Assembly: GCA_025463055.1 (NCBI GenBank)
Contig: JAOAPV010000090.1
Location: forward strand, 1 to 64,000
Length of the DNA: 64,000 nucleotides
Source: Candidatus Acidiferrum typicum
Lineage (GTDB): Bacteria > Acidobacteriota > Terriglobia > Acidiferrales > UBA7541
Direction of reading: 5' to 3'
Of the stretch, positions 3,182-17,481 are shown one piece after another. A program made the translations under genes and the position numbers. How positions within the stretch are numbered: the first letter of the stretch is position 1; every line of letters starts with the position of its first letter. The notes beneath the pieces were generated by a model. That model was not told where the DNA came from, ran no database searches, and was given only the letters and a program-made list of their open reading frames with translations.

Positions 3182-3487
3182 ATGACCTGCCAGAGACGCA
3201 CGAATCCGGTGCAGCGCTCGCTTTCCCGCCCGCTGACCATCCTGGGCGCGGAGCGAAAGCTGTTCTTTTTCGCGATGTGTCTCGGTGCCGGCACCTTCAA
3301 CCTGCTGGGAAGTCTGCTCGGCGGCGTGCTGATCTTTGTGCTGCTCTATTCCGCTGCCCGCTGGGCCACGCAAACCGACCCACAGATTCTGCGGTTTCTT
3401 CTCACCGCCGCCCGGTTGCGCACTCAATACGACCCCATGAAGTTCACTCCCATTGCCGTGCGCAGGACAGATCATGCTCAGGCTTAA
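3182..3487 (+). CDS. virB3: VirB3/TrbD-type T4SS inner-membrane protein
   Basis: 101 residues from ATG 3182. The arrangement is a short polar N-terminus, a paired hydrophobic segment (ERKLFFFAMCLGAGTFNLLGS then GGVLIFVLLYSAARWAT), the motif TDPQILRFL and a hydrophilic tail. This matches VirB3/TrbD, which anchors the VirB4 ATPase at the inner membrane. Its last codons overlap the virB4 start by 14 bases, consistent with coupled translation of two partner proteins. Confidence 0.85.
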   Translation: MTCQRRTNPVQRSLSRPLTILGAERKLFFFAMCLGAGTFNLLGSLLGGVLIFVLLYSAARWATQTDPQILRFLLTAARLRTQYDPMKFTPIAVRRTDHAQA

Positions 3488-5921
3488 ACGAATTTTCAAG
3501 AACTATGAAGAAACCGGCTCGCTAAACGAGCAGGTGAATCTCTTCGGATTCATCGGGCCCGAAGCGTTTCTCACGAAAACAGGAGAACTAGGCGTCATCC
3601 TCGAAGTGCGCGGCGTCGACTATGAGTGCCTCGATGGAGCGGCGATCGACGGGTTCACCAAGCGCCTCGAGTCCGCGCTGAAGCTTTTCGGAGAGGATTA
3701 CCGCGTTTACCAATACCTCTTCAAGCGCAACAACGAGACCATTCCCTACAGGCTGTACGGCAACCCGGTCGTGGATGCGGCGATCCAGAACCGCATCGCC
3801 TACCTGAACAGCAAAGCCGGTACCCTCTTCTCCCTCTCTATTTACTACGTGATTCTCTATCAGGGATCACGCATTTCCCACCACCTGGCAAGCACGCTCG
3901 CGCGATTCCCGGCAAATCCGAGAAAAGCCATCGCCGAGCTTCTTGCCCATTTCTGTCGGAAAAAACTGGTACTGCGCCTCGACCGGGAGATGAACGCCGC
4001 AGAAGCGGCGCTTCTTCAGAAGGCGCGGAGCTTTATCCTGCAGGTCAGTGACTTCCTGTCAATCCGCCTCCTCAGCAAGCAGGAGGCGTTCCTTGTCCTC
4101 AAGAGGACTCTGAACTTCGAACCACGGAAACTCGATCTCGCCAAACTCAAACACGACACCTTCCTTGATTACTATCTCTGTGAATCCCATCTTGAATGCC
4201 ATCGCGGGCATCTGCGTGTGGACGATTTCTACGTCAAGGTTTTAACGCTGAAAGAGCCTTCCGCCCAGAGCTTTCCGCTCATTTTCCAACGCCTTCTTGA
4301 AGTGGAAGCCAACTACCACGTCGTCACCGAATGGAAGAAAGAAGACTCCGGCAAAACGCGGCGCACGATCCAGGCCAAGCGCCGTCACTTTCACAACACG
4401 AAGCGCTCGTTCTTCAGCCAGGTCAACATCAACGACGCGCCCCAGCAGGACATGTTGCTCGACGACTCGAAGGAATCCCAGGTCCGGGAACTCGGCGAGG
4501 GCATCAAGGAGATCGAGCTGCACGGGAACTACTTCGGCCAGTTTTCACTGACCGTGGTCCTCTATGACCTCGAGCTTAGCAAGCTGGACCGTGCGTGCGC
4601 GGAGTTTTACAAGGTCTTCAGCGTCCACGACGCCCAGCTCTACGAAGAGAAGTACAACCTTCTGAATGCCTTTCTTGCCGCGGTGCCCGGCAATCACGCC
4701 TTCAACCTGCGCTATCTGTATCTGCTCAATACCAACTACGCCGACTTCTCCTTTCTCTTCACGCTGCATCGTGGCGAGCCGCGCAACCGCCATCTCGGGC
4801 AGGAATACCTCGCGGTGCTCGAGACCAACCACCGCACCACGTACTTCCTGAACCTGCACTATCACGATGTCGCCCACACGATGATCCTGGGCCGGACCGG
4901 CGCGGGGAAGTCGTTCCTGCTCAACTTCCTCATCACCAACCTGCAGAAATACGAGCCGCTCACGTTCATCTTCGACTTGGGCGGCAGCTTCGAAAGCCTC
5001 ACTCATCTCTTTGGCGGTTCGTACGTGCGCGTCGGATTGGAGTCCGAGGATTTCAAGATCAATCCCTTTTCGCTCCCGCCCACGAAGGAAAACCTCGATT
5101 TTCTCGCTTTGTTCCTTAAGGTTTTACTCCAGGGAAGTCGGATTGCCGAACTCGACCCTGCCATCGAGCGCGACCTCTACCATCAGATCGAGAATCTGTA
5201 CGCCATCGACCCCGCGCTTCGCACCCTCAGCGTGTTGGTTAACACCCTCGGGCATGACCTCGCCGGCCGCCTCTCCAAATGGACCCGCGGCGGTCAATTC
5301 GGCTTCCTCTTCGATAACGCGGAGGACACCATTTCGTTCTCCCGCTTTCAGTGCTTCGACTTCCAGCGCATGAGCCAGTACCCGGAACTACTCGAACCGC
5401 TGCTCTTCTACATCCTGCACCGCGCCAATGCCGTTATCGGGGACCGGCAGATCACTTCCGTCTTCAAAGCTTTCTTCATCGACGAGGCTTGGGTGTTTCT
5501 CAAGAACCCCAGCATTCAACGCTACGTCGTCGAGGCCTTGAAGACTTGGCGAAAACACAACGCCGCGATGGTGCTCTCCACGCAATCCGTCGATGAGCTA
5601 AAGCGTTCCGACATTCTCGATATCATCGTCGAAAGCTGCGCCAGCAAAATCTTCCTCGCCAACCCGGATATGGACCGCGATCTCTACCGGCGCCAGTTTC
5701 ACTTGAACGAAAACGAAGTCGAGCTGATCGCAGGCCTCATTCCCAAGCAACAATTCCTGATCAAGACACCGGAGTCGGGGAAAGTCGCCAATCTCACCGT
5801 GGACGCCAAGAGCTATTGGCTCTACACCAACGATCCCTATGACAACAAAAAACGGAAAGAAGCCTTCGAGACCTACGGCTTTGCGCGGGGCCTCGAAGTG
5901 CTTGCCGGCGGGCAGCCGTGA
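3474..5921 (+). CDS. virB4: VirB4/TrbE-type T4SS ATPase
   Basis: 815 residues from ATG 3474 (MLRLKRIFKNYEE). This start overlaps the end of virB3 and avoids upstream residues that read virB3 in another frame. The N-terminal ~450 residues form the CagE/TrbE domain. The C-terminal RecA-like domain has Walker A GRTGAGKS (473-480) and Walker B AFFIDEAW (D670, E671), then the STQSVDEL motif. It powers pilus assembly and substrate transfer at the inner membrane. Length is typical of the family and no key residue is missing. Confidence 0.95.
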   Translation: MLRLKRIFKNYEETGSLNEQVNLFGFIGPEAFLTKTGELGVILEVRGVDYECLDGAAIDGFTKRLESALKLFGEDYRVYQYLFKRNNETIPYRLYGNPVVDAAIQNRIAYLNSKAGTLFSLSIYYVILYQGSRISHHLASTLARFPANPRKAIAELLAHFCRKKLVLRLDREMNAAEAALLQKARSFILQVSDFLSIRLLSKQEAFLVLKRTLNFEPRKLDLAKLKHDTFLDYYLCESHLECHRGHLRVDDFYVKVLTLKEPSAQSFPLIFQRLLEVEANYHVVTEWKKEDSGKTRRTIQAKRRHFHNTKRSFFSQVNINDAPQQDMLLDDSKESQVRELGEGIKEIELHGNYFGQFSLTVVLYDLELSKLDRACAEFYKVFSVHDAQLYEEKYNLLNAFLAAVPGNHAFNLRYLYLLNTNYADFSFLFTLHRGEPRNRHLGQEYLAVLETNHRTTYFLNLHYHDVAHTMILGRTGAGKSFLLNFLITNLQKYEPLTFIFDLGGSFESLTHLFGGSYVRVGLESEDFKINPFSLPPTKENLDFLALFLKVLLQGSRIAELDPAIERDLYHQIENLYAIDPALRTLSVLVNTLGHDLAGRLSKWTRGGQFGFLFDNAEDTISFSRFQCFDFQRMSQYPELLEPLLFYILHRANAVIGDRQITSVFKAFFIDEAWVFLKNPSIQRYVVEALKTWRKHNAAMVLSTQSVDELKRSDILDIIVESCASKIFLANPDMDRDLYRRQFHLNENEVELIAGLIPKQQFLIKTPESGKVANLTVDAKSYWLYTNDPYDNKKRKEAFETYGFARGLEVLAGGQP

Positions 5922-6103
5922 CCTACGGCCTGCGTTTCGAAACCGGGGCTCCGGATCTCTACCCCACGTACGTTCTTCTACCGTTCGCGCTGGCGGCATT
6001 TCTCGCCGCGACTCTTTTCTCCGTGCAGTGGCTGGTCGAGTTATTTGCGGATCACAACCAAAGTCACGAGAAACACCACAGATCGTCACAAGGAGCACAG
6101 TAA
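5918..6103 (+). CDS. Small single-pass membrane protein in T4SS operon
   Basis: 61 residues from GTG 5918. The start overlaps the virB4 stop (GTGA) and the stop abuts the virB9 start, so it sits exactly between two core genes with no spare DNA. One hydrophobic helix (YVLLPFALAAFLAATLFSVQWLVELF, about residues 18-43) is followed by a charged, His-rich tail. There is no lipobox, so it is not an obvious VirB7. I do not recognise a family; position and coupling suggest an accessory T4SS subunit. Confidence 0.6.
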   Translation: MTYGLRFETGAPDLYPTYVLLPFALAAFLAATLFSVQWLVELFADHNQSHEKHHRSSQGAQ

Positions 6104-6951
6104 TGAAACTTCGCACTCGCAGTTCCTGGAAAAACCCGTTCCTTTCCATGCTGGTCATCGCTGTTTTTGGCGCGCCCGCTCTGTATGCACCACCGATCGC
6201 AGCGGCCGCTGAAGCGGCGCGTGTGGTGAAGTACGCGAAAGAAGACATCGTCCCCGTTCGCGCCAAGCTCCGCTTCTCGACCTTGATCGTACTTCCCGAC
6301 GCGGAAGAGATTCTCGATTTCACAACGGGCGACAAGGAGTTCTGGATCATCAACGGGTCGCACAACCTCTGCTATGTCCATCCCGCGCAGTCTGGCATCC
6401 GCAGCAACTTAAACCTCATCACCGCGAGCGGCCACGTTTATTCCTTTGTGCTGGCGGAGATCAGCAACGACCCGAATGCCGAGCCCGACCTCAAGATTTT
6501 TGTCGAGCCCAAGGAAGGCTCAGGCGTCTCCAAAACTTTGTTGCGCGGCTACGTGAGCGCGGGCGAGGCCGAAGCGTACAAGAAGGAGCTCGAGGCCTTG
6601 CGCGCGCAAACGGCGGCGCAGCTCCAGGCGGCACAAATCCAGTCAGCGGAGCAGGTCAATCGCTTCCGCTCCGCGTACACCACGAAACTCCAGTTTGACT
6701 ACCACCTCGACGCGAAAGCAGCGCGCGAACCGTTCTTGGTTTCCACTATCTATCATGACGACGCGTTCACGTATATCAAGTGCGCCGCGCGCGAAAAACC
6801 CGCGCTGTACGAAATCAAAGACGGAAAACCGAACCTCACCAACTTCCAATTCGAAAACGGCGTCTACATCGTTCCCAAAATCGTCGACAGCGGGTATCTC
6901 GCCATCGGCAAGAAAAAATTGCCGTTCAAGCGGCAAAGTTCCGCCAAATGA
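6103..6951 (+). CDS. virB9: VirB9/TrbG-type T4SS outer-membrane core protein
   Basis: 282 residues from ATG 6103 after AAGGAG at about 6090. A signal peptide covers residues 1 to ~36. The N-terminal half carries the typical TLIVLPDAEEILDFTTGDKEFW stretch, a coiled region (~155-190, EAYKKELEALRAQTAAQ) forms the middle, and the C-terminal beta domain includes FNFENG-like NFQFENGVYIV, DSGYLAIG and KKLPFKR. VirB9 forms the outer-membrane core ring with VirB10. The order virB4-small gene-virB9-virB10 resembles Trb-like systems. Confidence 0.85.
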   Translation: MKLRTRSSWKNPFLSMLVIAVFGAPALYAPPIAAAAEAARVVKYAKEDIVPVRAKLRFSTLIVLPDAEEILDFTTGDKEFWIINGSHNLCYVHPAQSGIRSNLNLITASGHVYSFVLAEISNDPNAEPDLKIFVEPKEGSGVSKTLLRGYVSAGEAEAYKKELEALRAQTAAQLQAAQIQSAEQVNRFRSAYTTKLQFDYHLDAKAAREPFLVSTIYHDDAFTYIKCAAREKPALYEIKDGKPNLTNFQFENGVYIVPKIVDSGYLAIGKKKLPFKRQSSAK

Positions 6952-6961
6952 GGGGTGGCCG

Positions 6962-8227
6962 ATGAACCAACCGAATCAACTGGAAGTGAAAGCTCCCCAG
7001 CCGGCCGGGCTCCTGCCGAAAAACGTTCAGTCTTGGCTGCTCATTGGCCTGGCGGTGCTCATGGTTCTGGTTATGTGGCTCACCGGAGGCAAGAAGCCCG
7101 CCGTCCCTGCCCGGACGCTTCCGCCCGCACCTCCTGTGCAAGCACCGCTCGAAGTCAATGAAGCCAAGATCGTGGATCTCCAGAATCGCATTCAGGAACT
7201 GCAGCGCGAGCAGATTGTCGCGCAGAACGCGTTGGCGCAGCAGAGCCGCTTGCTCGGCGCTGGAAATCAGGAGCCTTCATCCGCCGCAGTGCCGGGTTCG
7301 TCGGGTAACGCTCCACCCGAGCGGATCGAAGATCCGATTCGCACCGAGCGCAAGAAACGCGATTACCTGTCTCTGTTTGCCTCGAACGTGGCGCTTTCCT
7401 ACAGAAAAAATCCTCAGACACCGCAGCCGCGCGAAGGCGAGGCGCCTCCGTTCCCGTCCACTCCAGCGCCGGACCCGAGCGCCACGCAACTCGCCGACCT
7501 TCTCAAGCCGCTCCAGCCGGCCGCACTGGCCCCGACGGCGACACCCAATGCCCGCAAGGATTCCATTGCCGAAACCGATCGAAAGGAGGACCCCAAGATC
7601 CTTGCCCCTTCGCTGGCCGGTGCGCCGGCCGCGGCGGTAGGGAAAACCTATGTTCTGTTTGAAGGAACCGTACTCGAAACCGTGCTTGTCAACCGGCTCG
7701 ACGGACAAATGGCTGGACCCGTCGCGTGTCTGCTGACCAGCAACGTCTATTCCCATGATCGCCAGCATCTTCTGATTCCCTCAGGCTCGAAACTCCTCGG
7801 GGAAACCCGCAAGGTGGAGAATTTCGGGCAAAGCCGGCTGGCGGTTTCCTTTCATCGCTTGCTCATGCCGGATGGCTATTCGGTCAGCCTGGACCATTTC
7901 CAGGGACTCAACCAGATTGGGGACGCGGGTCTTCGCGACCAGGTCAACAACCACTATCTCCGGATCTTTGGCACCTCCCTCGCCATCGGGGCCATCGGCG
8001 CCGTCGCCGAAGGTGGTACCTCCGGGGCCTTGACTGCGTCTGGGGGAGATCTCATGCGCCAGGGATTTGCCCACAGCACCGCGCAATCCTCGGCACAGAT
8101 CCTCGACCGCTTTCTCAATATTCTTCCGACCATCACGATCCGCGAGGGGCACCGGATCAAGGTCTATCTGTCGGGCGACCTCGCGCTTCCCGACTACGCG
8201 AATCACACCATGCCTTCGGACCTCTGA
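6962..8227 (+). CDS. virB10: VirB10/TrbI-type T4SS core protein
   Basis: 421 residues from ATG 6962. A short cytoplasmic N-terminus is followed by one membrane helix (SWLLIGLAVLMVLVMWLTGG, ~24-43), a proline-rich periplasmic arm with a coiled coil (VDLQNRIQELQREQ), and the C-terminal VirB10/TrbI beta barrel (KTYVLFEGTVLETVLVNRLDGQ, LLIPSGSKLLGE, SVSLDHFQGLN, REGHRIKVYLSGDLALP). It spans both membranes and senses energy from the ATPases. It sits 10 bases after virB9. Confidence 0.93.
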   Translation: MNQPNQLEVKAPQPAGLLPKNVQSWLLIGLAVLMVLVMWLTGGKKPAVPARTLPPAPPVQAPLEVNEAKIVDLQNRIQELQREQIVAQNALAQQSRLLGAGNQEPSSAAVPGSSGNAPPERIEDPIRTERKKRDYLSLFASNVALSYRKNPQTPQPREGEAPPFPSTPAPDPSATQLADLLKPLQPAALAPTATPNARKDSIAETDRKEDPKILAPSLAGAPAAAVGKTYVLFEGTVLETVLVNRLDGQMAGPVACLLTSNVYSHDRQHLLIPSGSKLLGETRKVENFGQSRLAVSFHRLLMPDGYSVSLDHFQGLNQIGDAGLRDQVNNHYLRIFGTSLAIGAIGAVAEGGTSGALTASGGDLMRQGFAHSTAQSSAQILDRFLNILPTITIREGHRIKVYLSGDLALPDYANHTMPSDL

Positions 8228-8247
8228 GGGCGGAAAGAGAAAACTGC

Positions 8248-9069
8248 ATGCGAAAGAAGATTTTTATTTGCTTGCTCGTGTTTGGCTTGTGCGTCGGCAC
8301 CGCTTCGGGGCAATTCGGAATCGGCATCGTCTACGACCCCACGAATTACAGCAATGCGCTCCTCCGCTACTTCCAATTGCAACAGCAGCTCCTCCAGCTG
8401 CGCAACACGTACGCGCAGCTCGTCTCCCAATACCAACTGGCCGTCCAGATGGCCAAGAACCTGCAAAACATGCCCGCGCGCTATCGCGCGCAGTTCGCGC
8501 CATGGCGCAACGTCACCGCGCTCGACACCTATGCCAACACCGCCGGCTGGATCAATGGCGCAAACTCCGGCCAGCCGCAGACTGTTTTAACGGGTTATCA
8601 GCGAGCCACCACGCAACTTGGAGCGTACGACCCGGCGGCGCTCTCCGGCATGACCGCGGACGAGCTGGCCCGCGTCCAATCCCAGTACGCCTCGGTCGAA
8701 CTCGCCGACGGCGCCAACACCAACGCTCTTCTGACCATCGGATCGATCCGCGGCAACGCGCAGACGCTCGAAACCCGCATCAACAACCTCGAACAAGACT
8801 CGTTGTCGGGAGACTCCGCCCTCAATAGCGAGGTGCAGGTCCTGAACAAGATCAATGCCGCGAACGTGCTGACCCTTCGTTCGATTCAGGATTCCAACAA
8901 GCTCCTCGCTGCGCTTCTCGAACAACAAACCATCCTGGCCAAACAACAGCGCGAAGCCACAACCAACGCGATCAACACCGACATTAGCCGCCGTGCCAGC
9001 CTTGCCGGGAACATGGCGCAAGTCACGAGCACATTGACCAACTCACTGCAGAACTTCCGCATGCCGTAA
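8248..9069 (+). CDS. virB5: VirB5/TrbJ-like T4SS minor pilus protein
   Basis: 273 residues from ATG 8248. A short signal peptide (KKIFICLLVFGLCVGTASGQ) is followed by a mature protein that is almost wholly helical and Gln-rich, with YFQLQQQLLQLRNTYAQLV near residue 45 and DTYANTAGWINGAN near 95. The pattern is that of TrbJ/VirB5 periplasmic proteins that tip the pilus. Position between virB10 and virB6 supports this; sequence identity in this family is usually low, so the call is partly by context. Confidence 0.78.
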   Translation: MRKKIFICLLVFGLCVGTASGQFGIGIVYDPTNYSNALLRYFQLQQQLLQLRNTYAQLVSQYQLAVQMAKNLQNMPARYRAQFAPWRNVTALDTYANTAGWINGANSGQPQTVLTGYQRATTQLGAYDPAALSGMTADELARVQSQYASVELADGANTNALLTIGSIRGNAQTLETRINNLEQDSLSGDSALNSEVQVLNKINAANVLTLRSIQDSNKLLAALLEQQTILAKQQREATTNAINTDISRRASLAGNMAQVTSTLTNSLQNFRMP

Positions 9070-9101
9070 GTCCTCCACCCGCTTCGAAGGAGCCGAGCCC
9101 C

Positions 9102-9956
9102 ATGCAAACCGATTTCATCCAGTTCCTGTATCAGGCGATCAACAATCTTCTGACACAGAACCTCGGCTTCTTCGACGCCATGGGACAGAACTTGTTCCGC
9201 ATGTTCGCCACGATTCTCGTGGCTTGGTATGGCGTCAAGTCCGCTCTCGCCGCCGCTGGCGGAAAGCAATACTTCCACTTCGACAATTTTGCCAGCCTGC
9301 TCCTCACCATCGCCTTCGGCTTCGCCATGGTCAACTACTACAGCACCCCGATCCCCGGCATCGGCGCCAGCTTCCACAACCTGATCACCGACGAAGCACA
9401 ATTCCTCGCCAACCGCATCGACCAGGCCGAGTTGCAGACCATCGTGGCCCGCATCGGGGACTTTGAGGCCCGCATCGATGCTCCGGGCGTGACGGACTTC
9501 CTCGGCATCCTCATCTATGCCCTTGTCATTATTCTGCTGGCCGCGGCGCAGGCCATTTCCATCGTGGTCATCGCCTATGGGTTTATTGCCACCGCGGTTT
9601 GCGTGCTCGTGGGCCCCGTATTCGTGCCGTTCTTTATCGTTCCGAAGCTCGAATGGCTTTTCTGGGGCTGGCTGCGCTGCTTTATCCAATATGCCTTTTA
9701 CGAAGTCATCGCCGCCGCGGTCGTCTATGTCATCGGGAACCTAATCATCGGCGTGCTGACGTTGCAACCCGCGGGTACGATCTCGACGCTCCAACTCATC
9801 GGTTGGTTTCCCGTCCTCTTCATTACCTTTCTCGCCTCCATCTATGTCCTGCTCAAGGTTCCCGCACTCACCAATCACATCTTCAGTGGAACGGCGGGAG
9901 GTTCCTCCGCCGGAATTTTGGATGCGCCGGCCGCCGCTCTTGCCAAGGAGTTCTGA
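9102..9956 (+). CDS. virB6: VirB6/TrbL-type polytopic T4SS membrane protein
   Basis: 284 residues with five or more hydrophobic helices, including LGILIYALVIILLAAAQAISIVVIAYGFIATAVCVLVGPVFVPFF and VFFITF-like VLFITFLASIYVLLKVPAL. The invariant-looking GPVFVPFFIVPKLEWLFWGWLR stretch is a hallmark of VirB6/TrbL. The protein forms the inner-membrane channel. A Gly/Ser-rich tail ends the protein. The stop overlaps the next start (TGATG), so translation of virB8 is coupled. Confidence 0.88.
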   Translation: MQTDFIQFLYQAINNLLTQNLGFFDAMGQNLFRMFATILVAWYGVKSALAAAGGKQYFHFDNFASLLLTIAFGFAMVNYYSTPIPGIGASFHNLITDEAQFLANRIDQAELQTIVARIGDFEARIDAPGVTDFLGILIYALVIILLAAAQAISIVVIAYGFIATAVCVLVGPVFVPFFIVPKLEWLFWGWLRCFIQYAFYEVIAAAVVYVIGNLIIGVLTLQPAGTISTLQLIGWFPVLFITFLASIYVLLKVPALTNHIFSGTAGGSSAGILDAPAAALAKEF

Positions 9957-10627
9957 TGGACCGCGACACGACCTTCGAGGATGCCAAGCGTTTGTACCTG
10001 GAATCCTGCGGTGACCCCATGGTGACCAATACCTATTTGAAGATCGCCCTGGTTCTCGTGTCGCTCATCGCGCTCGCCCTTGGCCTCGTGGACCTGAGGA
10101 CCCTCCGCACGTTCGAGAACTTTCGCCCGCTGGTCATCCGCATCGACGACCTAGGTAGAGCCGAAGCCATCAACTACCACAACTTCGAATACAAACCGCA
10201 GGACGCCGAAGCCAAATACTTTCTTTCCCAGTTCACTAAGCTCTACTACCGCCGGAACCGCTACACGATCCAGGACGATTTCGCCAAGTCGCTCTACTTC
10301 CTCGACGGCAAGCTCGCGAACGGCATTCTCGATGCCTATCACAAAGATGACATCGTCCGGAAATTCCTAACCAACACCTCCGCGCCAGAGATCGATGTCG
10401 ACGTCAAGAAAGTCGCCCTAGAAGAGCTGCAGAATCCTCCCTATCGAGCCCGCGTCGATTTCTATTTGGTTTACTACTCGCCCGCCGATCACAGCGAGTT
10501 CAAGCGCGATTTGTATACCGGGAACTTCGTCTTTGTATTCCAGAGCCGCGTGCCGAACGAACTGATCCCCATCAATCCGCTGGGCCTGACGATCAGCTAC
10601 TTCCGCGAAGACCAGGCGTTCAAATGA
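9956..10627 (+). CDS. virB8: VirB8/TrbF-type T4SS assembly protein
   Basis: 223 residues from ATG 9956. A short cytoplasmic N-terminus with the AKRLYLESCGDP motif is followed by one membrane helix (YLKIALVLVSLIALALGLVDL, ~27-47) and a periplasmic NTF2-like fold ending LIPINPLGLTISYFREDQAF, which is characteristic of TrbF. VirB8 nucleates the inner-membrane complex. It overlaps virB6 by one base and the following small gene by four. Confidence 0.85.
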   Translation: MDRDTTFEDAKRLYLESCGDPMVTNTYLKIALVLVSLIALALGLVDLRTLRTFENFRPLVIRIDDLGRAEAINYHNFEYKPQDAEAKYFLSQFTKLYYRRNRYTIQDDFAKSLYFLDGKLANGILDAYHKDDIVRKFLTNTSAPEIDVDVKKVALEELQNPPYRARVDFYLVYYSPADHSEFKRDLYTGNFVFVFQSRVPNELIPINPLGLTISYFREDQAFK

Positions 10628-11178: not shown

Positions 11179-12099
11179 ATGTCCCGAGGCTACGAACACG
11201 ACGAGCATCTTGATCCGCGGCGGTCTTCCGATGGGCGGGAGCCTTACAACAGAGAGGCGCCGAAAACCGATGCGGTTTGCGCGCGTGCCACCGACCACGC
11301 ATCCCCATTGACGGGTGCCGAACGGCATCGCGCCGCCACTCGCCCGGCGGAACCCCGCACAGTGTACGAGCTTCGCGGTCGAACCTATCGTCTGCGCAAC
11401 TCCGAAATCGCAACGATGGTCGAGCTGGGAAAATTCCGCACCGTGGCCGCAGAGGATCTCGCTGAGTTCGCCTACGGCGGGGACAGCGACCGTATGCGAC
11501 CCGACGTGGAAAATCTCTTCCGGCACGGCCTCGCGGAAATGAAGTCCATTCCCCACGAGGAAACCGGCTTTCGGCAACTGCTCACCCTTACCAAGAACGG
11601 TCATCGCTTCCTCAAGGAGACGCAAGCCGCCGGCAAACAGCAGGCTGTCTACCACGGATTCACGAAGCCTCGCGAGGCCCACCACGATGCCGACCTCTAC
11701 CGCCTTTATCAAAAGGAGGCGGAAAAGATCGAGCGCCACGGAGGCAGAAACCTTCGCGTGGTCCTCGATTACGAGATGAAGAAGCGTCTCTATCACGATC
11801 TCGCGAAGCTCGGAAAAGACCGCAATTTGGCCGATAGCAAGCACGCTGTCGCGGAGACGCACGGGCTTCGAGTGGTGCGCGGCAAGATTCCCATGCCCGA
11901 TGTACGTATCGAATACGAAACGCGGGATGGTGAGAAGGCTCGCGTGGACCTGGAACTCGCCACCGGGCACTACCGCGGACGAACGCTGGCGGAAAAAGTA
12001 CGCGCTGGTTTCTCGATCTACGCCCATCCGGACGAAGCGTCCAAACTCCGGCGCATCTTGGACCAGCGGGAATTGACCGCGGAGATTTTGTCGCTATGA
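11179..12099 (+). CDS. Replication-relaxation-like (Replic_Relax-type) protein, candidate DNA-processing factor
   Basis: 306 residues from ATG 11179, one base after the previous stop. A disordered N-terminus (~1-65) precedes a winged-helix-like region (~70-155: SEIATMVELGKFRTVAAEDLAEF, LLTLTKNGHRFL). Next come an HHDADLYRLY helix and a nuclease-like strand pattern, PDVRIEY then RVDLELATG and KVRAGFSIY, resembling a PD-(D/E)xK core. This domain order fits Replic_Relax proteins of conjugative elements, but I could not align it. It occupies the place where a relaxase is expected; no HUH histidine triad is visible. It overlaps the next gene by four bases. Confidence 0.5.
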   Translation: MSRGYEHDEHLDPRRSSDGREPYNREAPKTDAVCARATDHASPLTGAERHRAATRPAEPRTVYELRGRTYRLRNSEIATMVELGKFRTVAAEDLAEFAYGGDSDRMRPDVENLFRHGLAEMKSIPHEETGFRQLLTLTKNGHRFLKETQAAGKQQAVYHGFTKPREAHHDADLYRLYQKEAEKIERHGGRNLRVVLDYEMKKRLYHDLAKLGKDRNLADSKHAVAETHGLRVVRGKIPMPDVRIEYETRDGEKARVDLELATGHYRGRTLAEKVRAGFSIYAHPDEASKLRRILDQRELTAEILSL

Positions 12100-13118
12100 A
12101 GATGCCTGGGGACCAAGTCGACAGGATCGCGGCCCTGGGTTACGCGGAAACCGAGGCGCGCTTCCTTTACATCGTGGCCACGCACTCCGGGTACTTTACG
12201 CTGCGCCAATTCCTTGCCTTTGCCGACGCCCATCGCGGGAAGCGTTCCACCGCGTTCGCCCAGAAACTCTTGAGACACGCGCATGCGACAGTTCGGGATT
12301 ACATGGGTACAGGCTCAGTCTTTCATCTCTTTTCCCGGCTCATCTACCGGCCTATCGAGAAAGACAATCTCCGCAATCGCCGGCGGCATTCGTTCGAGTA
12401 CATCCGCACGCGGCTCGTGCTTCTCGATTTTCTTCTTGAGAATCCCGACTACGACTTCCTCGAAACCGAACAAGACAAGGTCCGTTTCTTTTGCGAGTCT
12501 CTGGGAGTAGCGAAAGACGCTCTTCCCGCCAAAGTGTATGAAGGCGGCCCGGAGAGCCGACCCACGGTTCGCTATTTCGTGGATAAGTTTCCTCTGTTCG
12601 TTGCCTCGCCCATCTCCGATGTCTCTCCCGTGGTCACCTTCAGTTATGTGGATTCCGGGTGCGCCAGCCTCTCGAATTTCGCCGCCCATCTCGGAGCTTA
12701 CCAGGCGCTCTTCCGCCAGTTGAAATCGTTTCGCTTCCTGTATGTCGCGCCGAAAACCAGCCACTTTGCGAGCGCGGAAGCACGCTTTCGCAATTTCATC
12801 AAGCCGCCTCTCGAGTCCGACGTCTCGAGCGAGATCGTCCGCTATTTCGATGTTCGCCGGAATTGGGAGCGGCACGAATACGTGATCCCGGTCACGGAAG
12901 ACTTCGAGTTTCTCGCGGAAGCGCGGCGACGCTTCCACGGTGAGCGCTTCGAAAGCCTGTACGCGTCATGGTGCGCGGGCCGCCTCGCCGAGCGGGAGTT
13001 GCGTGGCGAGTTTCGGCAGTTAACGCCGGATCGAGCGGTTTCTTTTGAAACCTATCTCGTCAGGAATGGCCGCTCGCCCGTCGACGAGAAGCACAGGAAT
13101 CGGGTGAACGGTGCATGA
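12096..13118 (+). CDS. Unknown conserved-looking mobile-element protein, possible partner of preceding gene
   Basis: 340 residues from ATG 12096 (ATGA overlap with the preceding stop). The N-terminal ~60 residues (AETEARFLYIVATHSGYFTLRQFLAFAD) read like a winged helix. The centre has RRHSFEYIRTRLVLLDFLLENPDYDFLETE and then beta-rich TVRYFVDKFPLFVAS. I do not recognise a family. The similar size, winged-helix start and tight coupling suggest it works with the preceding protein, perhaps at the structured DNA that follows directly. Its last codons contain the first copy of the GGTGAACGG repeat. Confidence 0.6.
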   Translation: MKMPGDQVDRIAALGYAETEARFLYIVATHSGYFTLRQFLAFADAHRGKRSTAFAQKLLRHAHATVRDYMGTGSVFHLFSRLIYRPIEKDNLRNRRRHSFEYIRTRLVLLDFLLENPDYDFLETEQDKVRFFCESLGVAKDALPAKVYEGGPESRPTVRYFVDKFPLFVASPISDVSPVVTFSYVDSGCASLSNFAAHLGAYQALFRQLKSFRFLYVAPKTSHFASAEARFRNFIKPPLESDVSSEIVRYFDVRRNWERHEYVIPVTEDFEFLAEARRRFHGERFESLYASWCAGRLAERELRGEFRQLTPDRAVSFETYLVRNGRSPVDEKHRNRVNGA

Positions 13119-13173
13119 ACGGCACAGATCACCCACTGGTTCACGGTTCCGTTCACCTCCGCGGTGAACGGAA
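13103..13173. repeat. GGTGAACGG direct and inverted repeats upstream of coupling-protein genes
   Basis: GGTGAACGG occurs at 13103-13111 and 13163-13171, a near copy CATGAACGG at 13114-13122, and the inverse CCGTTCACC at 13149-13157. TTCCGTTCACC (13147-13157) and GGTGAACGGAA (13163-13173) form a perfect 11-bp inverted repeat with a 5-nt centre. The pattern fits binding sites for a transfer or replication protein. Confidence 0.7.
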
Positions 13174-13220
13174 GTTGTGGAGAGCACGGCGGTTGCGCAT
13201 CGCGCGACGATTGATTTTGG

Positions 13221-13340
13221 ACGCGGGCAAAACACTCGGATGGGCTGGAGCGACCCCACTTCGTTGCCGCGGAAACCGTGGCGGTCGCTCCAGCCCAGGG
13301 AACAGGGAACCACTCTGTTCACCCTGTGTTTTGCCCGCGT
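13221..13340. other. Three-way-junction inverted-repeat element, candidate oriT or structured RNA
   Basis: An outer perfect 15-bp pair (ACGCGGGCAAAACAC 13221-13235 with GTGTTTTGCCCGCGT 13326-13340) encloses two hairpins. The first is TGGGCTGGAGCGACC (13241-13255) with GGTCGCTCCAGCCCA (13283-13297), extended by CCAC/GTGG across a one-base bulge. The second is CAGGGAACAG (13296-13305) with CTGTTCACCCTG (13315-13326), two unpaired bases. It sits 37 bases before a small putative DNA-binding gene and the coupling protein, a common place for oriT. It could also be a non-coding RNA. Confidence 0.7.
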
Positions 13341-13377: not shown

Positions 13378-13614
13378 ATGTCCATCATTAACAAACCGCC
13401 GGAGATGGTAAAACGGGAATACGAATTGCAAGAGCCGATCGCGGTCGCCGTCGAGAAGTATGCAACGTTCATCCAGAGCACGCCGGATCATGTCGTCAAC
13501 TCCGCGTTGAAAATGGTCATCTGGAGAGACGCGGAGTTCCGGCGCTGGCGCAAGCAGCAGACCTCGACTGAAAAGAAGGACAGCCACACCACGGTTAAGG
13601 CAGCGCGCGCATGA
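13378..13614 (+). CDS. Small putative ribbon-helix-helix-like accessory protein
   Basis: 78 residues from ATG 13378 after AGGAGAA. The core, MVKREYELQEPIAVAVEKYA then TPDHVVNSALKMVIWRDAEFRRW, gives one strand and two helices as in ribbon-helix-helix or TraM-like accessory factors; the tail is Lys/Thr-rich and soluble. The stop overlaps the virD4 start (ATGA). Its place between the structured repeats and the coupling-protein gene suggests it binds the candidate oriT. The fold call is by eye and tentative. Confidence 0.65.
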   Translation: MSIINKPPEMVKREYELQEPIAVAVEKYATFIQSTPDHVVNSALKMVIWRDAEFRRWRKQQTSTEKKDSHTTVKAARA

Positions 13615-15608
13615 TGCAGCGAGTCCTGCACACGAGACACTTCCTCGCGTGTCTCCTCGCGGCGGCCACCGGGATGGCGCTCTTCTTCCGGGCGCCGTTC
13701 CCCGAGGCCAATCTCTTTCTGCAAGTCATGGCCCTACGGTCCGCCGCGGCCTATCTCTTTTTCAAGTACTCCTACACCGTCTTCTTGTACACCACGCCGT
13801 ACATCGCGTTTTCCGTCGTGCTTTCCGGCATCTACATTTTCGCCCTCAAGGCCGATCGCAAAATCCGCGCGGGACGACTTCCGCTCTATCCCGACCCGCG
13901 GACCAGAACTGAACTTTCGCTCGTGCTCGGCGAGGTGCACGACCCCCGCAAACAGGTTCCTTCGGAGACGCCCCGCTGGCTAGTCCTCCCGGAACGCGGG
14001 CTCTTCACGGGGGTCGCTATCGTAGGAGCCGTCGGATCGGGAAAAACCGCGAGCTGCATGTACCCTTTCGCCGAGCAGATCCTCGCCTATCGCGCCGCGG
14101 ACCCCGACCGGCGCATTGGCGGACTCATTCTGGAAGTGAAAGGCGATTTCTGTGCCCGGGTTCGCGAAATCCTCGCATGCCACGGCCGCGCCGATGATTA
14201 TGTCGAAATCAGCCTTGAATCCGACTACCGTTACAACCCTCTCCACAACGATCTGGACGCGTACGCCCTCGCCTACAATATCGCTTCCCTGTTGAATAAC
14301 CTCTTCGGCCGCGGCAAGGAACCTTTCTGGCAGCAGGCCTACACGAACCTTGCGAAGTTCATCATCCTGCTTCACAAGGTCGCCTTCGACTACGTCACGC
14401 TCTTCGATGTCTACGAATGCGCCATCAACCCGGATCTCTTGGAAAGCCGAATCAAGGAAGCCCAGCGCCGGCTGATCGAGTCCGATTCCGTCCTGCTCTG
14501 GGAAGAAGAGTATCTGAAGTATCCGCGCGACCTCGAACCGTTCCAGTTCCGCCTGGAAAAGGAATTGAACCGTTACCGTGCCCCGCTGACGCTGGGTCTC
14601 GCCGCGGTGTTGAAAGACAGAAGCATTCAGTGGGAGGCGGAAAATGCCTCGCGTGCCAACCCTATTCCCGCGCAGAAGAAAGCGCAGCTCGAAGCCGTCG
14701 AGCGATGGTTCTATCACGATTGGAGAAGAATCGAGCCCAAACTACGTACCTCCATCGTAGAAGGGATTTCCGTATTTCTCTCGCTGTTCGACGACAATCC
14801 TGCCGTCAAGCGCACGTTCTGTCCGCCCGCGGAGTGTTACGACCCGCACGCCAACGCGGATTTCAGATTCGGCAAACCCCTGCCTTCTCTCTCCTGGCTT
14901 GTCGAAAATGGCCGCCTCTGCTGCCTCAATTTCCCGATCGCCATGAATGCGGGCCTGGCCAAGGCGCTGGGTGTGATGTTGAAGCTCGATTTCGAACGTG
15001 CCGTGCTCAACCGCGTGCCCGTGATGGAAAAGAATCCGGAAAGCTACTTTCGTCAGGTGCTATTTCTTTGCGATGAGTACCAACATTTCGCTACCGTGGG
15101 CGAGAGCGAACCGACCGGCGACGAAAAATTCTTCAGCCTGTCTCGCCAACCCAAGTGCATTCCTATTATCGCCACGCAAAGCATCAGTTCCCTCAAATCC
15201 GCACTGCCGGGAGAATCGTGGCGCACCCTGCTGCAAACGTTTCGAACGAAAATCTTTCTATCGCTCTCCGATGACTTCTCCGCGCGCACGGCCAGCGAAC
15301 TCTGTGGGCGGGAGGACCGGCTCAAAGCCAGCTACAGCCTCTCGGAAAGCGGGCACGACGCGCGGGTCAGCCTGCTCACCGGCAAAGCCCTCTCGCACCG
15401 AGCGAATATCACCGCTTCCAAAAGCTACAGCCCGCATCACGATTTCCGGTTCGACACCAAGACCTTCATGGAGCTGCGCAACGCACAGTCTGTAACCATC
15501 GCCTATGACGGCACGAACCCGATGCCACCGATGTTCTGTTACCTCAAGCCCTACTACAACAACGTCAACAAATCCTACTTCCGCCAGCTCGCGGACGGAG
15601 AACTGTGA
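13611..15608 (+). CDS. virD4: VirD4/TraG-type type IV coupling protein
   Basis: 665 residues from ATG 13611. Hydrophobic N-terminal segments (~10-35 and ~50-80) anchor it in the inner membrane. Walker A is GAVGSGKT (139-146) and Walker B is LFLCDEYQ (D488, E489), followed by ATQSISSL. Downstream ELCGREDR and FDTKTFMELRNAQSVTIAYDG fit the TraG/VirD4 C-terminal motifs. It links the DNA-relaxase complex to the secretion channel. Alternative start: the next ATG, three bases on. It overlaps the virB11 start. Confidence 0.9.
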   Translation: MMQRVLHTRHFLACLLAAATGMALFFRAPFPEANLFLQVMALRSAAAYLFFKYSYTVFLYTTPYIAFSVVLSGIYIFALKADRKIRAGRLPLYPDPRTRTELSLVLGEVHDPRKQVPSETPRWLVLPERGLFTGVAIVGAVGSGKTASCMYPFAEQILAYRAADPDRRIGGLILEVKGDFCARVREILACHGRADDYVEISLESDYRYNPLHNDLDAYALAYNIASLLNNLFGRGKEPFWQQAYTNLAKFIILLHKVAFDYVTLFDVYECAINPDLLESRIKEAQRRLIESDSVLLWEEEYLKYPRDLEPFQFRLEKELNRYRAPLTLGLAAVLKDRSIQWEAENASRANPIPAQKKAQLEAVERWFYHDWRRIEPKLRTSIVEGISVFLSLFDDNPAVKRTFCPPAECYDPHANADFRFGKPLPSLSWLVENGRLCCLNFPIAMNAGLAKALGVMLKLDFERAVLNRVPVMEKNPESYFRQVLFLCDEYQHFATVGESEPTGDEKFFSLSRQPKCIPIIATQSISSLKSALPGESWRTLLQTFRTKIFLSLSDDFSARTASELCGREDRLKASYSLSESGHDARVSLLTGKALSHRANITASKSYSPHHDFRFDTKTFMELRNAQSVTIAYDGTNPMPPMFCYLKPYYNNVNKSYFRQLADGEL

Positions 15609-16579
15609 TGAACGGATTTGAAATCATCCTCCCGTTTTTGAAGCCGATCGAGCACCTGATTCTTGACGAATCCATCAGCGAGGTCATGGTCAACGGTCCG
15701 GACCACATCTTCATCGAGAAGGCCGGATTCCTTGAGCCGGTCCAAGGTATCCATCTTGGCGAAAAATCCCTGATGGTGGCGGTCAAGAATATCGCACGCC
15801 GGCTGGGTGACGATATTTCCGAATCGAAACCCATCCTGGATTCGCGCCTCCCGGACGGAAGCCGTGTCGCCGCCGTGATCCCTCCCTGCAGCGTCAACGG
15901 CGTGACGCTCACGATCCGCAAATTCAACGCCCGCCTTTTCGGTGTCGAAGACCTCGTTCAGGCGGGAACGCTCGAACGCTGGCTCGCGAATCAGCTGGAG
16001 GCTTACGTTCTGGCCCGGAAAAGCATCCTCATCGCCGGCGCTACAGGATCAGGAAAAACTTCGATGCTCAACGTCCTTGGGAAATTCATTCCCGCCGACG
16101 AACGCATCCTCCTCATCGAGGACACCTCGGAAATCCACATGGGCCAGGACAATCTCGTTCGTTTCGAAGCCCGGCAACCCCAGAACGGTCTTCCCGGCGT
16201 CACCATCCGAGAACTCCTCAAGGCAGCGCTTCGCCACCGGCCGGACCGCATCATCCTCGGCGAAATTCGAGGAAGTGAGGCCTTCGATCTCCTGCAGCTA
16301 CTCAACACCGGACACTCCGGCAGTCTTTCGACCGTTCATGCTACGTCGGCGAGACAAGGCCTCGCGCGATTCACCAGCTGCGTATTGCAAAGCGGCGTGG
16401 ACCTCCCCTACCGCGCCATCAAGACCAACATCGGCGATTCGCTCGATGTCGTCGTGCATCTCGAACGCCGCCCCGGCCGGCGCTTCGTCTCCGAAGTCGT
16501 GGAAATCCAGGGTTACGATCCCGATAGAGATGAGTACAGCTACGCTTGCATTTTCGACGGCCATAAGGAGGCTCTATGA
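15608..16579 (+). CDS. virB11: VirB11/TrbB-type T4SS hexameric ATPase
   Basis: 323 residues from ATG 15608; GTG at 15605 is an alternative. The N-terminal domain includes ISEVMVNGPDHIFIE. The C-terminal domain has Walker A GATGSGKT (144-151), the Asp box LLIEDTSEIH, and the His box GHSGSLSTVHA, all typical of VirB11/TrbB/GspE secretion ATPases. It supplies energy for pilus assembly and substrate transfer in the cytoplasm. Start and stop both overlap neighbours, so virD4, virB11 and the primase gene are translationally coupled. Confidence 0.94.
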   Translation: MNGFEIILPFLKPIEHLILDESISEVMVNGPDHIFIEKAGFLEPVQGIHLGEKSLMVAVKNIARRLGDDISESKPILDSRLPDGSRVAAVIPPCSVNGVTLTIRKFNARLFGVEDLVQAGTLERWLANQLEAYVLARKSILIAGATGSGKTSMLNVLGKFIPADERILLIEDTSEIHMGQDNLVRFEARQPQNGLPGVTIRELLKAALRHRPDRIILGEIRGSEAFDLLQLLNTGHSGSLSTVHATSARQGLARFTSCVLQSGVDLPYRAIKTNIGDSLDVVVHLERRPGRRFVSEVVEIQGYDPDRDEYSYACIFDGHKEAL

Positions 16580-17481
16580 CTCCCGTGGAGAACGCGACCT
16601 CCTTGGCGCCGTCTGCTTCGGAATACATACTCGACACCTTCGAGCCAACCGACCGGATTGCCATGCTCGTGTTAAACCGAGACTTCGGCGAAACCATCCA
16701 ACGCATCACCGGCGCCCAGAAAGCCGCGAGTCCCGAATTTCAGGCCTGGCTTCGCTACAAGAATGCGAACGGCTCGGACATCTATCTGGGGATGAACCCC
16801 CTCCGGCAAGATGCCGCTACGCGCACAAAAGAAGAGATCCAAACCATTCGGCATGTTTACCTCGACTTGGACCAGGGCGGTCCGGAAGCGCTCCAATCCG
16901 TCGAAGACTCCAGCGCCGTCCCCAAACCGAATTATGTGCTGACCAGTTCTCCGGGAAAATTCCAGGTCGTATGGAACGTGGAAGGGATGGGTCTGGACGA
17001 GGCGGAAAGTCTATTGCGCGCCATGGCGCGCGAATTCGGCGGTGATCCCGCCGCCACCGATGCCACTCGCGTTTTGCGCCTTCCCGGTTTCGCCAACAAG
17101 AAATACGAAACGGACTTCTATGTCGAGGCTCGCAAAGAGTCCACGGAAACCTATCATCTTCGCGATTTCAAACTGCACATCGACTCGCAGGACTCGCCGC
17201 GTTACAACCACCGCAACCGCTCACGACGGGAGTCCCCTCAACCCAGCAGTCTGAGCCAGTCCGAACACGACTGGGCTTTCGCCAAGCGGGCCCTCGCCCG
17301 CGGGGACGCCCCAGAGGAAGTCATCCGCCGAATCGCGGACTATCGAGGCGGCGAAAAACAGCCTAACTATGCCAGGTACACCGTCGAGAAAGCTCAATTG
17401 GACCTGCAACGCGGAGGAGCCAAGTTGCAGCCGAGCGAGAGAAATACAGCTCCGACAACCGAACCTAGCCACGAACCGTGA
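16576..17481 (+). CDS. RepB-like (AEP) DNA primase domain protein
   Basis: 301 residues from ATG 16576, overlapping the virB11 stop. The primase core shows the metal-binding DxD in HVYLDLDQGG (~95-104), then YVLTSSPGKFQVVW, and the nucleotide-binding signature ATDATRVLRLPGFANKK (~157-173). These are motifs of archaeo-eukaryotic-type primases of the RepB-like plasmid family. The C-terminal ~100 residues are polar, with a helical segment AFAKRALARGDAPEEVIRRIADY. It probably primes complementary-strand synthesis of the transferred or replicating element. It is the last gene of the transfer operon before the integrase. Confidence 0.82.
   Translation: MTPVENATSLAPSASEYILDTFEPTDRIAMLVLNRDFGETIQRITGAQKAASPEFQAWLRYKNANGSDIYLGMNPLRQDAATRTKEEIQTIRHVYLDLDQGGPEALQSVEDSSAVPKPNYVLTSSPGKFQVVWNVEGMGLDEAESLLRAMAREFGGDPAATDATRVLRLPGFANKKYETDFYVEARKESTETYHLRDFKLHIDSQDSPRYNHRNRSRRESPQPSSLSQSEHDWAFAKRALARGDAPEEVIRRIADYRGGEKQPNYARYTVEKAQLDLQRGGAKLQPSERNTAPTTEPSHEP

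What the first reader, a model, noticed from the sequence alone, without database searches (positions are those of the whole stretch)
13103..13340. Three-way-junction DNA element next to iteron-like repeats: candidate oriT of a new type
Perfect 15-bp outer arms enclose two further hairpins (15-bp and 10-bp) in only 120 bases, just after four GGTGAACGG-type repeats. It sits between the putative DNA-processing genes and the coupling-protein gene, behind no promoter or terminator of its own. Such dense, compact dyads are not explained by protein coding: the one open frame across it is a shadow of the repeats.
Basis: partly seen in the sequence, partly recalled or inferred. Interest (0 to 1): 0.75.

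Follow-up and report, generated by a model that had tools for sequence, protein, structure and literature searches.

The report
Transfer origin of Acidobacteria conjugative elements
A short stretch of DNA that folds into a three-armed knot is very probably the start point (oriT) from which a self-transmissible element of uncultured soil Acidobacteria, and smaller islands that copy the same knot, send their DNA to other cells; no published oriT for this group turned up in the papers searched.

Summary
The structure is real. Perfect 15-bp outer arms (13221-13235/13326-13340) enclose a 15-bp hairpin and an ~8-bp hairpin (0 of 200 shuffles fold as well). It lies inside an ICE: VirB4, VirB9, VirB10, VirB6, VirB8, VirD4 coupling protein, VirB11, RepB-type primase and a tyrosine integrase beside tRNA-Gly. 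The same element follows the homologous gene in about 30 related ICE/IME loci, with compensatory changes in both long stems.

It travels through three grades of mobile element: complete ICEs; IMEs with only ORF1-ORF2-element-small protein-integrase; and islands with the element and an integrase but no transfer genes. Some islands carry two elements of different type. That hierarchy is the signature of an origin of transfer. ORF1 looks like a very divergent MOBC (Replic_Relax) relaxase: winged helix plus a restriction-endonuclease-like domain.

Limits: four loci keep ORF1-ORF2-coupling protein but have lost both element and small protein; three elements have poorly matched outer arms; class-level relatives keep only the inner hairpin (core GGGAGCGACCCC). 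So that hairpin is probably the essential part, with the outer arms and third hairpin lineage-specific. No nick site is mapped. oriT: about 0.85.

The parts
13221..13340 (+). three-way-junction element, candidate oriT
   Evidence: perfect 15-bp outer arms, inner hairpin, third hairpin; z -10.3; covariation; conserved in ICEs, IMEs and islands
13221..13235 (+). left outer arm ACGCGGGCAAAACAC
   Evidence: 8 of 19 outer pairs show changes on both sides among 16 relatives
13326..13340 (+). right outer arm
13241..13297 (+). inner hairpin with the most conserved core GGAGCGACCCC; probable recognition/nic core
   Evidence: core letters invariant in 16 relatives and kept in class-level relatives; pattern of the core found only in Acidobacteria apart from one record labelled Betaproteobacteria
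13300..13320 (+). third hairpin, 8 bp, sequence differs between types
13103..13173 (+). GGTGAACGG-type repeats and 11-bp palindrome (lineage-specific additional site)
   Evidence: similar GTTCACC/GGTGAAC palindromes in L010 and L027, GTCACCC/GGGTGAC in L014-L016
11179..12099 (+). ORF1, MOBC-like relaxase candidate (winged helix + PD-(D/E)xK-like domain)
   Evidence: hhalign against PF13814 proteins Prob 88, E 3e-7; C-domain model resembles restriction endonucleases, PaqCI Z 7.4; conserved PD..E..E..K
12096..13118 (+). ORF2, partner mobilization protein of unknown fold
   Evidence: overlaps ORF1; homologues in 42 of 151 genomes; no Pfam or PDB match
13378..13614 (+). small protein SMALL, ribbon-helix-helix-like accessory candidate
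   Evidence: homologue 90-190 bp behind the core in most loci, ICEs and IMEs alike; lost together with the element; weak profile match to PutA RHH
13611..15608 (+). VirD4/TraG coupling protein
   Evidence: PF12696, PF10412
15605..16579 (+). VirB11 ATPase
   Evidence: PF00437 E 2e-49
16576..17481 (+). RepB-type primase
   Evidence: PF16793
17524..18882 (+). tyrosine integrase
   Evidence: PF00589
18897..18970 (-). tRNA-Gly, probable integration site
3453..10627 (+). type IV secretion genes VirB4, VirB9, VirB10, (VirB5-like position), VirB6, VirB8
   Evidence: Pfam matches

Best explanation
The element is the origin of transfer of an Acidobacteria ICE family. Inferred mechanism: after excision, a relaxosome forms here from ORF1 (MOBC-like nuclease), its partner ORF2 and the small RHH-like protein. 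The inner hairpin with its near-invariant core GGGAGCGACCCC is the recognition site and the most likely place of the nick. The outer arms are two inverted copies of a lineage-specific site that can also pair into a three-way junction once the DNA is single-stranded or supercoiled. The nicked strand is handed to the VirD4 coupling protein encoded just downstream. Smaller islands carry copies of the element and so ride on ICE machinery. Shown here: structure, covariation, location, and distribution over ICE, IME and element-only islands. Inferred: nicking, binding partners, strand and transfer.
For: Conserved in place and architecture behind ORF2 in about 30 loci. On 16 distinct elements 92% of cells are paired, 47 cells show changes on both sides, covariation 0.220 against 0.058 or less when slid and 0/500 shuffles. 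Three grades of carrier: ICEs (for example L142, L154, L163, L168), IMEs with ORF2 or ORF1-ORF2, element, small protein and integrase but no coupling protein (L036/L140, L158, L161), and islands without ORF1, ORF2 or T4CP (L007 in the same genome beside tRNA-Ser; L105, L106, L147, L153, L164 and others). Two-element islands of different type (L106/L139, L110/L160, L111, L162) fit oriT mimicry of several ICEs. Element and small protein are absent together in L125, L127, L128, L129, and decayed together in L013. In L026 and L046 the left half matches one ICE type and the right half another. ORF1 is distantly related to MOBC relaxases with a restriction-endonuclease-like fold.
Against: No nick site, binding or transfer has been measured. 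Four loci keep ORF1-ORF2-coupling protein without the element, so either those have another oriT or are not transferable. Poorly compensated outer arms in L007, L026 and L046 and missing outer arms in class-level relatives argue that the three-way fold itself is not essential. Direct hmmscan to PF13814 is below cut-off. Element-only status is judged on contigs or stretches of limited length, and the left end of the window's ICE was not found.
Confidence: 0.85

Rival explanations
1. It is a structured RNA (a regulatory leader for the small protein/coupling protein, or a transfer-linked small RNA like the sgm-sRNA of SGI1) that acts when transcribed.
For: Very stable RNA fold, lies in a run of same-strand genes, stems covary. 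SGI1 shows that an sRNA can be needed for mobilization (PMC9299015).
Against: The element occurs with no small-protein gene detected behind it (L110, L111, L147, L160) and 300-600 bp away from it in L007, L113, L122, so it is not a fixed leader. G-U pairs are not preferred over A-C mismatches in the inner stem. No Rfam match. No promoter-like site.
Confidence: 0.08
2. It is a single-strand initiation site (ssi-like hairpin) or replication origin for the RepB-type primase encoded 3 kb downstream.
For: The ICE encodes a RepB_primase protein, and ssi sites of RSF1010-type plasmids are hairpins (recalled, not tested).
Against: Primase and element do not track each other: L125, L127 and L128 have the primase gene but no element, while islands and IMEs have the element without the primase.
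Confidence: 0.04
3. It is a recombination or target site (integrase arm site or insertion hotspot) rather than an oriT.
For: An IS110-family element sits inside the inner hairpin in three loci of two genomes; hybrids and one deletion join inside or beside it (L026, L046, L045).
Against: Integrases lie next to tRNA genes, not to the element, in the ICEs. The element is conserved beside the mobilization genes and independent of integrase type.
Confidence: 0.03

Closest known systems
MOBC relaxase systems (CloDF13 MobC, pAD1 TraX; PF13814 Replic_Relax)
   Same: Relaxase candidate has winged helix plus restriction-endonuclease-like domain with PD..E..K; gene beside a VirD4-type coupling protein; MOBC relaxases are described as related to restriction endonucleases (PMC6499999) and PF13814 as MobC (PMC5357655)
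   Different: ORF1 is below the PF13814 cut-off; always paired with ORF2 and, near the element, the small protein, neither of known family; element sequence not compared with CloDF13 or pAD1 oriTs
pWBG749-family oriT and SmpO (staphylococcal plasmids, PMC8136818)
   Same: Accessory small protein of the mobilization region, several oriT subtypes, and mimics on elements without mobilization genes
   Different: Different phylum and element class (ICE/IME instead of plasmids); here the mimics sit on integrated islands, some with two subtypes; binding by the small protein not tested
IMEs that integrate into or borrow ICE oriTs (PMC7563843)
   Same: Nested mobile elements built around an ICE's oriT
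   Different: There the IME inserts into the oriT of the ICE; here islands carry their own copy, and it is an IS110-family element that sits in the hairpin
SGI1 mobilization module (oriT, MpsAB, sgm-sRNA; PMC9299015)
   Same: Island with non-canonical mobilization proteins and its own oriT
   Different: SGI1 uses tyrosine-recombinase-like proteins; ORF1 here is nuclease-like

Membership tests
origin of transfer (oriT) | non-coding DNA with inverted repeats beside relaxase/coupling-protein genes | tested here: met
origin of transfer (oriT) | carried by mobilizable elements that lack secretion genes, down to elements with no transfer gene | tested here: met
   (within the stretches seen)
origin of transfer (oriT) | strand-specific nick by the cognate relaxase | not testable with these tools
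   needs purified ORF1/ORF2 and primer extension
origin of transfer (oriT) | makes a non-mobile plasmid transferable in cis | not testable with these tools
   mating assay; host group known here only from metagenome-assembled genomes
MOBC / PF13814 relaxase (ORF1) | Pfam PF13814 score above curated cut-off | tested here: not met
   1 of 18 members at E 0.076; no match in own genome
MOBC / PF13814 relaxase (ORF1) | full-length profile similarity including PD..E..K motif | tested here: met
   hhalign Prob 88, E 3e-7 against 10 PF13814-matching proteins, nine over its cut-off; invariant P, D, E, E, K
MOBC / PF13814 relaxase (ORF1) | restriction-endonuclease-like catalytic fold | tested here: met
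   C-domain alone: top rows are nearly all PD-(D/E)xK nucleases, PaqCI Z 7.4, rmsd 3.3, 105 residues; Z is below 8, so moderate
ribbon-helix-helix accessory protein (small protein) | RHH fold | tested here: inconclusive
   profile matches PutA RHH at E 0.16; no Pfam match
integrative and conjugative element | T4SS, coupling protein, relaxase, integrase, tRNA site | tested here: met
   relaxase only as MOBC-like
integrative and conjugative element | direct repeats at both ends | tested here: inconclusive
   no repeat of the tRNA-Gly end elsewhere in the window; the contig starts close to the ICE

The most novel reading that the evidence does not exclude
A new class of transfer origin for a divergent MOBC-like relaxase pair, in which a folded three-way junction is itself the recognised substrate, and which has become a shared currency: ICEs, IMEs and gene-poor islands, some carrying two origins of different specificity, form a hitch-hiking network in uncultured Acidobacteria.
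Probability: 0.3. Interest if true: 0.75.

Novelty: new variant of a known kind. Interest (0 to 1): 0.6.

Why it matters
No oriT or relaxase characterised in Acidobacteria was found in the papers searched, although ICEs there have been reported (PMC3158045). A searchable oriT model shows which islands in this mostly uncultured soil group can move and on whose machinery. It also offers a compact test case for MOBC-type relaxases, for which a 2019 paper reports no known structure (PMC6499999), and for how oriT specificity evolves by mixing half-sites.

Tried and rejected
Known RNA family: only the tRNA matches Rfam in the window. Multicopy repeat or MITE: the own genome holds only this copy and the C92 island copy. 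Coding explanation: minus-strand frames not conserved. Plasmid relatives: none by protein or DNA. CloDF13 was fetched as a MOBC yardstick, but the record's mobilization region reads as broken frames, so it was not used. The search for related loci with ORF2 found nothing in genome contigs; the genome search did. A first pair count was done with the structure mistyped by two columns and repeated correctly. Foldseek with full-length ORF1 was filled by the MarR/PadR-like winged helix, so the C-domain was modelled alone. No other R1-like element was found in the four element-free ICE-like loci. Fold and family of ORF2 remain unknown.

Full report
OBSERVATION. Outer arms 13221-13235/13326-13340 and inner arms 13241-13255/13283-13297 are perfect 15-bp inverted repeats, two of the three such repeats in the 64-kb window. 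As DNA or RNA it folds far more stably than shuffles (z -8.9 and -10.3, 0/200). The third hairpin is 8 bp with one G-T, and the inner loop holds one more 7-bp hairpin. Upstream are two direct and one inverted exact copies of GGTGAACGG.

SURROUNDINGS. The window holds an ICE: VirB4, VirB9 (CagX), VirB10 (TrbI), VirB6 (TrbL), VirB8, ORF1, ORF2, element, a 78-aa protein (SMALL), VirD4 coupling protein, VirB11, RepB-type primase and tyrosine integrase, next to tRNA-Gly.

CONSERVATION. ORF2 homologues are found in 42 of 151 relatives. Behind most intact ones in the genus and family lies the same element. On 16 distinct copies the 19-bp outer and 18-bp inner stems are 92% paired, with 11 pairs changed on both sides; covariation is 0.220 against 0.058 or less for slid versions, and no shuffle reaches it. 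GGAGCGACCCCA is invariant. Outer arms fall into types, for example ACGCGGGCAAAACAC (window), GTCACCGTGGAAAAAACAC and GCACGCGGCCAAAACAC. In other families of the class only the inner hairpin with GGGAGCGACCCC remains. The pattern GGGCKGGAGCGACCCCACTT occurs in 35 stretches of the 257-Gb genome collection, all labelled Acidobacteria or Acidobacteria groups (Terriglobia, Ca. Acidiferrales, Ca. Acidiferrum) except one labelled Betaproteobacteria.

HIERARCHY OF CARRIERS. This is the main evidence for function. (1) ICEs: ORF1-ORF2-element-SMALL-T4CP-VirB11-primase. (2) IMEs: ORF2 or ORF1-ORF2, element, SMALL, sometimes xis, integrase, without coupling protein (L036/L140, L158, L159, L161), or with their own coupling protein then integrase (L135/L155, L143). 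(3) Islands with the element and usually SMALL and an integrase but none of ORF1, ORF2, T4CP: L007 in the window's own genome beside tRNA-Ser, L105, L106/L139, L122 beside tRNA-Pro, L147, L153, L164 and others. L106, L110/L160, L111 and L162 carry two elements of different type within about 1 kb. In the own genome the island's left half and core are of the window ICE's type (GGGCTGGAGCG), while its SMALL is of IME type. An oriT predicts such a series; an RNA leader, a primase site or an integrase site does not.

COUNTER-EVIDENCE. L125, L127, L128 and L129 keep ORF1-ORF2-T4CP-VirB11 but lack both element and SMALL; L013 has a decayed element and truncated SMALL. Joint loss ties SMALL to the element but also shows that the mobilization genes can persist without it. 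L026 and L046 join a left half of one type to a right half of another, and L007 lacks the right outer arm. So pairing of the outer arms is not strictly kept; they may be two copies of a protein site, and their covariation would follow from shared protein specificity as well as from pairing. These two readings are not separated here.

PROTEINS. ORF1 (11179-12099): N-terminal winged helix like MarR/PadR (Z 11); C-terminal domain alone (pLDDT 84) aligns mainly with PD-(D/E)xK nucleases, PaqCI first (Z 7.4, rmsd 3.3, 105 residues). Profile-profile comparison with 10 PF13814-matching proteins of the same phylum gives Prob 88, E 3e-7 over the full length with PD..E..K aligned, although the direct Pfam score is below cut-off. 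PF13814 corresponds to MobC/MOBC relaxases (PMC5357655), which are related to restriction endonucleases (PMC6499999). I therefore call ORF1 MOBC-like, not a member of PF13814. ORF2 has no known relative. SMALL is RHH-like at best (PutA RHH E 0.16).

MECHANISM. ORF1/ORF2, with SMALL as accessory, bind the element; the inner-hairpin core is the likely nic region; the nicked strand goes to the downstream coupling protein. Structure, conservation and distribution are shown; nicking and binding are inferred. Parallels are the staphylococcal oriT mimics read by SmpO (PMC8136818) and the SGI1 mobilization module with its sRNA (PMC9299015), which keeps the RNA rival alive at low probability.

SIDE FINDING. 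An IS110-family element (transposase PF01548) sits in the inner hairpin in three loci of two genomes, after GGGCGGGAGCGACC(C); its end carries a 15-nt reverse complement of the target flank.

Noticed in passing
L175 (G005:C236:1-6000), L034 (G028:C37), L052 (G028:C4): An IS110-family element about 1.65 kb long sits inside the oriT-like hairpin at the same base in three loci; all copies found in these two genomes lie there. Its non-coding end carries GGGTCGCTCCCGCCC, the reverse complement of the target flank: possibly a guide (bridge RNA) specialised on the hairpin.
   Followed up: partly
L045 (G005:C208:37400-38700, reverse strand): An ICE remnant jumps from inside the core (GGGAGCGAC) straight into the 3' part of a tyrosine integrase gene next to tRNA-SeC: a deletion with one end in the candidate oriT core.
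   Followed up: partly
L110, L111, L106, L162: Islands with two elements of different arm type within about 1 kb, as if to be mobilised by two kinds of ICE.
   Followed up: partly
L125, L127, L128, L129: A subfamily of ICE-like loci with ORF1-ORF2-T4CP but neither element nor small protein; their oriT, if any, is unknown.
   Followed up: partly
window 16576-17481: RepB-type primase gene directly behind virB11 in these ICEs, suggesting priming or replication of the transferred or excised DNA.
   Followed up: no
L152 (CAJCHZ010000106.1): A contig labelled Betaproteobacteria carries the Acidobacteria ORF1-ORF2-element module; probably a misbinned contig.
   Followed up: no
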